A DNA stretch of 64,000 nt from Haloterrigena sp. KLK7 (GTDB taxonomy: Archaea > Halobacteriota > Halobacteria > Halobacteriales > Natrialbaceae). The DNA lies in assembly GCF_037914945.1 (NCBI RefSeq), contig NZ_CP149787.1, positions 1,302,001 to 1,366,000 on the forward strand, written 5' to 3'. The notes under the pieces were generated by a model, which made no database searches, was not told where the DNA came from, and was given only the letters and a program-made list of their open reading frames with translations. Below, piece after piece: positions 25,213 through 27,065 of this stretch; positions within the stretch are counted from its first letter, which is position 1, and each line of letters opens with the position of its first letter. Both the position numbers and the translations under genes were made by a program.

Positions 25213-25293
25213 ATGAGCTCGAACGAAGCAGACATGGACAAACGTCTACAACGTATCGGTGGGGGTTCGATCGGAACTGAGGTGGTCGCCTGA
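25213..25293 (+). CDS. 26-residue leader ORF overlapping the Amt-PII start
   Basis: ATG at 25213 starts [19 protein letters not shown]. Its TGA (25291-25293) overlaps the ATG of the transporter gene (25293) in TGATG. The end of the ORF also holds GAGGTGG, a good ribosome binding site for the transporter. This is a classic coupling layout. The peptide is charged, then Gly-rich; I do not recognise it. It may be a leader peptide or simply the short first gene of the operon. Confidence 0.45.
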
Positions 25294-27065
25294 TGGAGTC
25301 GACGCTCCTGCAGAGCGAAACGGAGATCGAGATGCTGATGGAGGCGGTCAACTACACGTGGATCCTGGTCGCGACGTTCCTGATCTTCTTCATGCACGCC
25401 GGCTTCGCCATGCTCGAGGCGGGGCAGGTGCGCTCGAAGAACGTCGCCAACCAGCTGACGAAGAACCTGCTGACCTGGAGCGTCGGCGTAACGGTGTTCT
25501 TCCTGATCGGTTCCACGATCGAAGGATTCGTGGCCGGTAACGGTATCGCGTTCCAGTTCAACGCCGAGGCTGTCAGCTGGATGGACTGGCTGTACGGCGC
25601 CGTCTTCGCGATGACGGCGGCGACCATCGTGTCCGGGGCCGTCGCCGGCCGCGCGAAACTCCGCGCGTACGTCACGTACACCTTCCTGCTGGCCGCGGTC
25701 ATCTACCCGGTCGTCACTGGGATGACCTGGGCCGGCGGTCACATCGAGGCGATCACCGGCACGCCGTTCTCCGACTTCGCGGGCGGCATGATCGTCCACG
25801 GGATGGGCGGCATCGCCGGCCTCACCGCCGCGTGGATCCTCGGACCGCGCATGGACCGATACAACGACGACGGGAGCGCCAACGTCATTCCCGGCCACTC
25901 GCTGACCTTCGCCGTGCTCGGAACGCTCATCCTCGCGTTCGGCTGGTACGGCTTCAACGTCGGGACCTCGGCGATCTTCACTGACGGCTCGTTCGACGGC
26001 GCCGTTCTCGGTCGCGTCGCCCTGACCACCACGCTCTCGATGGCCTGCGGGGCGATGGGCGCCGGCCTCATCGCGCTGTTCAAGACCGGCAAGGTCGACA
26101 CGCTCTACGTCGCGAACGGCCTGCTGGCTGGCCTCGTCGGGATCACCGCGATTCCCGACGCCTCGAGCTGGTTGGGCGCGCTCCTCGTCGGTACGCTCGC
26201 CGGCGCGCAGCTCCCGATCGTCTTCGGACTCACCGAACGCATGGGCATCGACGACGTCTGTGCGGTCTTCCCCGTTCACGGCTCGGCCGGCGTTCTCGGG
26301 ACGCTGCTGTTCCCGGTCGTCGCCACTGACGGTGCACTCGAGGCGATCGGGGCGACCCGCGCCGAGGCGGCCGTCGCTCAGGTCACCGGCGTCGTCGCCA
26401 TTACCGTCTGGACGGTCGTCGCGACCGGCATCATCTGGTTCATCTTCAAGCTGGCAGGCCAGGCTCGAGTCACGCCCGAACACGAACGCGACGGACTCGA
26501 CGTCTCCGAACACGGCGTCGACACGTACCCCGAGTTCGGTCAGCCAGACGTCGCGACCGACGGCGGTGAGCGATTCGGAGAATCGCGATCCTCGTCAGAA
26601 CTCCGTTCTGACGGCGGTCGCACTACTGACGACAAGATCATCCGCACTGACGGCGGTGAGCGACTCGACGAGTCGCGATCCTCGTCAGAGCTTCGCTCTG
26701 ACGGCGGCAAGCCCAACGACGGCGATCTCAAGATGATCACCGCGGTTATCCGCCCCGACAAGCTGGGCGACGTCAAGAAGGGCCTCGCCGAGATCGGCGC
26801 GCCCTCGCTGACGGTCACCAACGTCTCCGGCCGCGGCTCCCAGCCCGCGAAGAAGGGCCAGTGGCGCGGCGAGGAGTACACGGTCGATCTCCACCAGAAG
26901 GTCAAGGTCGAGTGCGTCGTCGCCGACATCCCGGCTCAGGACGTCGTCGAGGCCATCGGCGAGGCCGCCAACACCGGCGAGCCCGGCGACGGCAAGATCT
27001 TCGTGATGCCCGTCGAGGACGCCTACCAGGTCCGGACCGGAAAAACCGGACAGGACGCCGTCTAA
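25293..27065 (+). CDS. Ammonium transporter fused to PII (AmtB-GlnK fusion)
   Basis: 590 residues. Residues 1-415 are an Amt channel with about 11 membrane spans; the twin histidines are in [10 protein letters not shown] (H169) and VFPVHGSAG (about H329). From about 479 a complete PII domain follows: [38 protein letters not shown] (start of the T-loop), and the ending [15 protein letters not shown]. In most Halobacteria amtB and glnK are separate adjacent genes. Here they are one frame joined by a hydrophilic linker (about 420-478) that contains two palindromic repeats. PII normally blocks the channel when nitrogen is plentiful, so this would be tethered control. Confidence 0.93.
26559..26617. 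repeat. In-frame palindromic repeat, copy 1
   Basis: 59 bp encoding part of the linker [20 protein letters not shown]. It contains two hairpins, GCGATTC-GGA-GAATCGC and CGTCAGAAC-TCC-GTTCTGACG. It is 52 of 59 identical to copy 2 at 26649-26707, in the same frame, exactly 90 bp apart. Six of the seven differences fall as pairs or loop bases that keep both hairpins intact. Confidence 0.8.
26649..26707. repeat. In-frame palindromic repeat, copy 2
   Basis: 59 bp encoding [20 protein letters not shown]. Hairpins are GCGACTC-GAC-GAGTCGC and CGTCAGAGC-TTC-GCTCTGACG. Compared with copy 1, T-A pairs become C-G and A-T becomes G-C, so base pairing is preserved. This is the mark of a mobile palindromic element, as with the Rickettsia palindromic elements that sit inside genes. 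Confidence 0.8.

What the first reader, a model, noticed from the sequence alone, without database searches (positions are those of the whole stretch)
25293..27065. Ammonium transporter covalently joined to its PII regulator
Halobacteria usually encode AmtB and GlnK as separate neighbouring genes. Here a single frame holds channel, linker and complete PII domain with T-loop. Tethering would make the gate unimolecular (three PII per trimer) and remove the free cytosolic PII pool unless another glnK exists.
Basis: partly seen in the sequence, partly recalled or inferred. Interest (0 to 1): 0.75.

Follow-up and report, generated by a model that had tools for sequence, protein, structure and literature searches.

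The report
Ammonium channel fused to its regulator
In this salt-loving archaeon the membrane channel that takes up ammonium and the sensor protein that plugs it are made as one chain; the fusion is real and is the cell's only such sensor, but it is common among its relatives and also turns up in gut bacteria.

Summary
ORF 25293-27065 (590 aa) holds a complete Amt channel, a disordered linker and a complete PII (GlnK) domain in one frame. It is the only PII and the only Amt gene in a 99.4% complete genome.

The premise that halobacteria usually keep the genes separate is wrong here. In 110 PII-bearing genomes of the same family, 104 have the long fused frame, and about 60% of 141 sampled genomes from other Halobacteria families do too. 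Both domains were verified in about 127 distinct fused ORFs. Haloferax, the lab model, is one of the exceptions. Amt-PII fusions also occur in Bacillota.

Fused and split forms are not two clades (AU p about 1e-49; at least 7-9 state changes). Some split relatives carry fission scars. Sequencing error is excluded. Internal start is unsupported. Proteolysis is untested.

Best mechanism: a self-tethered AmtB-GlnK gate, with 2-oxoglutarate/ATP/ADP switching the T-loop in and out of the pore. Ligand, T-loop and channel residues are conserved; the gating itself is inferred.

Two side findings: an in-frame palindromic 51-nt element that builds this linker and sits inside unrelated proteins, and a short upstream ORF whose stop overlaps the amt start codon.

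The parts
25293..26537 (+). Amt ammonium channel domain with canonical cytosolic C-terminal region (residues 1-415)
   Evidence: Pfam PF00909 23-412. His pair H169/H329, Phe gate F105/F221, W146, D161 invariant in 50 fused proteins. C-terminal region [24 protein letters not shown] aligns with E. coli AmtB RVPEEQEREGLDVNSHGENAY. Fold matches AmtB in the AmtB-GlnK complex, TMt 0.83.
26538..26714 (+). Linker, residues 416-474, TDGG-type repeats, predicted disordered
   Evidence: pLDDT under 50 for residues 403-471. Length 20-68 aa in 126 relatives. Same TDGG/RTDGG repeats form the C-terminal tail of Amt in split relatives.
26568..26618 (+). Palindromic in-frame mini-element, copy 1 (51-nt unit, peptide [17 protein letters not shown]), preceded by GACGGCGGT at 26559-26567
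   Evidence: Absent from the same place in relative L091.
26658..26708 (+). Palindromic in-frame mini-element, copy 2 (peptide [17 protein letters not shown]), preceded by GACGGCGGT at 26649-26657
   Evidence: Absent from the same place in relative L091.
26715..27065 (+). PII (GlnK) domain, residues 475-590, with stop
   Evidence: Pfam PF00543 480-584. R525, Q517, K536, K568 invariant and Y529, R581 nearly invariant in 50 fused proteins; they align with E. coli GlnK R47, Q39, K58, K90, Y51, R103. Best solved relative 4ozj, E 2.1e-59.
25213..25293 (+). Short upstream ORF, 26 codons ([26 protein letters not shown]), stop overlaps the amt ATG (TGATG)
   Evidence: In 91 of 158 distinct amt upstream regions a short-ORF stop overlaps the start codon (offsets -2, +1, +4), against 0-5 at other offsets.

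Best explanation
The gene encodes a covalently self-regulated ammonium channel. The Amt part forms the usual trimeric channel; each subunit carries its own PII domain on a flexible tether that begins where E. coli AmtB ends. Three tethered PII domains would trimerise under the channel. When 2-oxoglutarate is low (nitrogen replete, ADP form), the T-loops would insert into the pores and close them; when 2-oxoglutarate and MgATP bind, the T-loops would withdraw and ammonium would enter. Tethering fixes 1:1 stoichiometry, so control depends on ligand state rather than on amounts. Because no other PII gene exists, all PII signalling in this cell, including any control of glutamine synthetase, must start from the membrane-bound protein. 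The fused state interconverts with the coupled amt-glnK gene pair by small changes at the junction. Shown: fusion, sole PII, intact functional residues, conservation, repeated state changes. Inferred: trimeric assembly, gating, ligand control, consequences for glutamine synthetase.
For: Both domains complete in one frame. Only PII and Amt in the genome. About 127 distinct fused ORFs in other assemblies. Channel, C-terminal and PII ligand/T-loop residues invariant or nearly so among 50 fused proteins and shared with E. coli AmtB and GlnK. The two-cation site and pore-blocking residues of the Amt receptor Ks-Amt5 are largely not conserved. AlphaFold gives an Amt fold, disordered linker 403-471 and a PII fold. 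In Haloferax mediterranei, separate GlnK binds AmtB1 after ammonium shock (PMC3831643). Fused and split states are interleaved in the Amt tree. Halosimplex and L064/L074 keep linker repeats (IRTDGG...EPNDGEIKM) at the N-terminus of a now separate GlnK, behind an in-frame stop.
Against: No expression, transport or binding data. A trimer could not be modelled (monomer only). The closest solved Amt chains are the Amt receptors Sd-Amt1 and Ks-Amt5 (E about 1e-50 to 1e-52), not AmtB (E about 4e-31), so a sensing role for the Amt part is not fully excluded. Proteolytic release of PII was not testable. The E. coli GlnK R38 position is Ser here and K40 is Pro, so details of T-loop control may differ.
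Confidence: 0.78

Rival explanations
1. The fused chain is cut in the linker after translation, releasing a soluble PII pool, so in the cell it behaves as two proteins.
For: The linker is predicted disordered, 403-471, and varies strongly in length, which suits a cleavage region. Many relatives carry the two as separate genes.
Against: No conserved motif beyond the TDGG repeats was seen in the linker. The separate state, where it exists, is encoded genetically by a stop and start.
Confidence: 0.12
2. An internal start within the frame makes an extra free PII from the same mRNA.
For: An ATG (M481, nt 26733) lies at the start of the PII fold, and 107 of 127 fused genes have ATG at that site.
Against: 20 of 127 have a Leu codon there (CTG or CTC). 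Separate PII genes show the same Met/Leu exchange at this position (54 ATG, 20 Leu codons, 1 AAG), where their own start lies upstream, so the Met is probably structural. Only 5 of 127 fused genes have an SD-like motif before it, and only 10 of 126 linkers contain an earlier in-frame ATG.
Confidence: 0.06
3. The Amt part is an ammonium receptor rather than a channel, and the PII domain is its output module.
For: Closest solved sequences are the receptors Sd-Amt1 and Ks-Amt5. Amt domains fused to signalling domains are known (PMC5764959).
Against: Of the Ks-Amt5 cation-site residues Q24, D50 and T51 are replaced (H35, T61, W62), and the blocking residues Y30 and F34 are L41 and Q45. It is the only Amt in the genome. 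Separate relatives sit beside glnK as transporters do.
Confidence: 0.06
4. A sequencing or assembly error removed a stop between two genes.
For: Split relatives have the two genes overlapping or one stop apart.
Against: The same fused frame is found in about 127 distinct ORFs from independent assemblies.
Confidence: 0.005

Closest known systems
AmtB-GlnK regulated channel of E. coli (2NUU, 2NS1) and Haloferax AmtB1/GlnK1 and AmtB2/GlnK2
   Same: Same two domains, same pore and C-terminal residues, same PII ligand and T-loop residues; AmtB-GlnK association shown in Haloferax mediterranei (PMC3831643).
   Different: There the two are separate proteins from adjacent genes, with a free PII pool; here one chain and no other PII gene.
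Amt-PII fusions of Bacillota: Ruminococcus albus WP_013483901, Enterococcus raffinosus WP_222227351, Monoglobus pectinilyticus WP_320691151
   Same: Same domain order in one 570-601 aa ORF, Amt then P-II.
   Different: About 33% identical over the whole chain; T-loop lacks the Tyr at the E. coli Y51 site; linker unrelated. Whether they arose independently was not tested by a tree.
Ks-Amt5 (Amt-histidine kinase) and Sd-Amt1 receptors
   Same: Amt trimer with a C-terminal regulatory domain; closest solved Amt sequences.
   Different: Output domains differ, and the Ks-Amt5 cation-binding site is not conserved here.

Membership tests
Amt/MEP/Rh ammonium transporters (PF00909) | Full-length Amt profile match above the curated cut-off | tested here: met
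   317.7 bits against cut-off 23.2, profile 2-399 of 399. TIGR00836 amt scores 326, just under its stricter cut-off 343.3.
Amt/MEP/Rh ammonium transporters (PF00909) | Pore residues: His pair, Phe gate, selectivity-filter Trp, conserved Asp | tested here: met
   H169, H329, F105, F221, W146, D161 invariant in 50 fused proteins; the filter Ser is Thr225 here, also invariant.
Amt/MEP/Rh ammonium transporters (PF00909) | Transports ammonium or methylammonium | not testable with these tools
   Needs an uptake assay.
PII signal proteins (PF00543) | Full P-II profile match above cut-off | tested here: met
   98 bits against cut-off 25, profile 2-102 of 102.
PII signal proteins (PF00543) | 2-oxoglutarate/ATP residues (E. 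coli Q39, K58, K90, R103) and T-loop R47, Y51 | tested here: met
   Q517, K536, K568, R525 invariant, R581 and Y529 in 90% or more of 50 fused proteins.
PII signal proteins (PF00543) | Encoded as a free, soluble protein (the usual form; a domain-level membership does not require it) | tested here: not met
   The only PII in the genome is in-frame with Amt; release by cleavage could not be tested. It is a PII domain, not a classical free PII protein.
Amt-type ammonium receptors (Ks-Amt5) | Two-cation site Q24, E31, N47, D50, T51, T109, T112 and blocking F27, Y30, F34 | tested here: not met
   H35, E42, N58, T61, W62, T111, S114 and F38, L41, Q45 here (residues, alignment).
Amt-PII fusion architecture | Amt followed by P-II in one ORF | tested here: met
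   also Bacillota examples.

The most novel reading that the evidence does not exclude
In many Halobacteria the ammonium channel is itself the cell's only PII sensor: glutamine synthetase is controlled by recruitment to the channel-tethered PII at the membrane, so transport and assimilation are switched at one place, and lineages move between tethered and free PII by small changes at the junction.
Probability: 0.25. Interest if true: 0.75.

Novelty: new variant of a known kind. Interest (0 to 1): 0.5.

Why it matters
PII is generally treated as a diffusing hub that reaches many targets, and archaeal work on AmtB-GlnK rests on Haloferax, where the genes are separate. In this genome, and in about 94 of 110 PII-bearing family genomes, the only PII found is tied to the channel. 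That allows a clean test of which PII functions need a free protein, and the repeated gains and losses of the tether are a natural experiment. No paper describing a native Amt-PII fusion was found in the held library, though such genes sit in public genomes annotated simply as ammonium transporters.

Tried and rejected
Sequencing error: rejected (about 127 distinct fused ORFs). Fusion restricted to this genome or genus: rejected. Fused genes as one clade: rejected (AU p 1e-49). Internal start: not supported. Linker as a high-copy repeat in the own genome: only the two linker copies match the element pattern there. Literature searches for a described native Amt-PII fusion found none. A first scan for the PII-core Met was two codons off and was repeated correctly. 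Class-wide rows were truncated, so fused counts come.

Full report
OBSERVATION. The ORF 25293-27065 is open for 590 codons from ATG. Pfam finds a full Ammonium_transp domain (residues 23-412) and a full P-II domain (480-584). The own genome is 4.64 Mb in 5 contigs, 99.44% complete; PF00543 and PF00909 each match once, both in this ORF. Two glutamine synthetase genes are present. The neighbours are hemB (ALAD) upstream, and a small PH-domain protein and a class-III aminotransferase (hemL-like) downstream.

ANATOMY. The Amt part includes the whole cytosolic C-terminal region known from E. coli Amt[25 protein letters not shown] against RVPEEQEREGLDVNSHGENAY. The linker starts where AmtB ends. Among 50 fused proteins the His pair H169/H329, Phe gate F105/F221, W146 and D161 are invariant; so are PII residues Q517, R525, K536 and K568; Y529 and R581 are in at least 90%. 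These align with E. coli GlnK Q39, R47, K58, K90, Y51 and R103. AlphaFold (50-row alignment, mean pLDDT 77) gives an Amt fold, a disordered stretch 403-471, and a PII fold with a low-confidence T-loop. Foldseek matches the Amt part to Amt receptors and to AmtB in the AmtB-GlnK complex.

HOW COMMON IT IS. In the window's family, 110 of 116 genomes at least 95% complete have a PII gene; by my count of the table, 104 have it in a frame of 550 aa or more, and in about 94 of these no second PII passes the cut-off. In a sample of seven other families 46 of 61 genomes have a frame of that length, and in the two largest remaining families 39 of 80. These counts use open-frame length; both domains were checked directly in about 127 distinct fused ORFs. 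Named genera with fusions include Natrialba, Natrinema, Haloterrigena, Halorubrum, Halovenus, Natronomonas, Halorussus, Halobaculum and Salinarchaeum; Haloferax, Halogeometricum and Halosimplex are split. Outside archaea, tblastn of plasmid records found single-ORF Amt-PII proteins in Ruminococcus albus, Enterococcus raffinosus and Monoglobus, confirmed by Pfam.

EVOLUTION OF THE JUNCTION. In split relatives the genes usually overlap out of frame at the stop/start, and the Amt tail already carries TDGG/RTDGG repeats. The linker is therefore the ordinary Amt tail joined to the GlnK N-terminus. On the Amt tree, fused and split forms are interleaved: at least 9 changes are forced by well-supported branches in 129 rows and at least 7 in a careful tree of 57 rows, and one fused clade is rejected with p-AU about 1e-49. 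The Amt tree does not follow the genus and family groups, so gene exchange probably contributes to the number of changes. Fission is suggested directly: in Halosimplex and loci L064/L074 the separate GlnK keeps an IRTDGG...EPNDGEIKM leader in the same frame as Amt behind a stop codon; in the Haloferax genes of the same Amt type a single stop, with an ATG two codons on, separates the two. In the window's genus and nearest relatives the PII half is about 97% identical while the Amt half ranges from 72 to 93%, which suggests recombination near the linker; no formal recombination test was run.

ALTERNATIVES. Sequencing error is excluded. An internal start at M481 is not supported: the position is Leu in 20 of 127 fused genes and shows the same Met/Leu exchange in separate GlnK genes. 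Cleavage in the linker cannot be tested here. A receptor role is less likely: the closest solved sequences are Amt receptors, but key Ks-Amt5 cation-site and pore-blocking residues are not conserved.

MECHANISM. In bacteria GlnK inserts its T-loop into AmtB at 1:1 trimer stoichiometry (review PMC10710835), and Haloferax GlnK binds AmtB1 after ammonium shock (PMC3831643). With the contact and ligand residues kept, the fused protein most likely works the same way within one trimer. PMC3831643 also refers to GlnK activating glutamine synthetase in Haloferax; in this genome any such control would have to come from the tethered PII. This last step is inference.

NOVELTY. Amt with fused signalling domains is known (PMC5764959). 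No paper on a native Amt-PII fusion was found in the library held, which lacks most subscription journals. I rate it a new variant of a known kind: surprising in its spread and in being the sole PII, not a new principle.

SIDE FINDINGS. The two linker repeats are copies of a 51-nt in-frame palindromic element (peptide [20 protein letters not shown]). Relative L091 lacks both at the same places. A core pattern matches in 54 of 116 family genomes, and the reversed control pattern in none. In the 30 loci inspected the longest same-strand open frame over the element reads it in the same frame, including inside mesaconyl-CoA hydratase, a heavy-metal P-type ATPase, a class I tRNA synthetase, an ABC permease, a Mrp/NADH-type antiporter subunit, a TnpB-like protein and a DHH protein. 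Its first hairpin, which the search pattern did not constrain, pairs in 83% of cells against 65% after shuffling, maximum 69%. It resembles Rickettsia palindromic elements in behaviour (own knowledge); none was found described for haloarchaea. A short upstream ORF (25213-25293) has its stop overlapping the amt start; 91 of 158 distinct amt upstream regions show such an overlap.

Noticed in passing
26568-26618 and 26658-26708; also L113-L142: A 51-nt palindromic mini-element with two hairpins, flanked by GACGGCGG, inserted in a fixed reading frame ([20 protein letters not shown]) in this linker and in unrelated housekeeping proteins of the family; hairpin 1 covaries between copies. Behaves like the Rickettsia palindromic elements.
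   Followed up: partly
25213-25293: A 26-codon upstream ORF whose stop overlaps the amt start (TGATG). Length is better conserved than sequence in relatives; 91 of 158 distinct amt upstreams have a short ORF ending on the start codon. Suggests a coupled leader peptide controlling amt translation.
   Followed up: partly
L091, L030, L153 compared with 25293-27065: The Amt half diverges far more than the PII half between close relatives (72-93% against 97%), and Amt halves group across genera, as if the Amt cassette is swapped by recombination at the linker.
   Followed up: partly
L163, L170, L064, L074: Separate GlnK proteins that keep linker repeats (IRTDGG) at their N-terminus in the same frame as Amt: apparent scars of gene fission.
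   Followed up: partly
L094:3286-4917 (-): A second PII in a 543-aa open frame with no detectable Amt, next to a fused gene; may be a decayed duplicate.
   Followed up: no
L048:3006-3515, L091:1411-1893, L092:1481-2245: Some genomes carry an extra free glnK just downstream of the fused gene.
   Followed up: no
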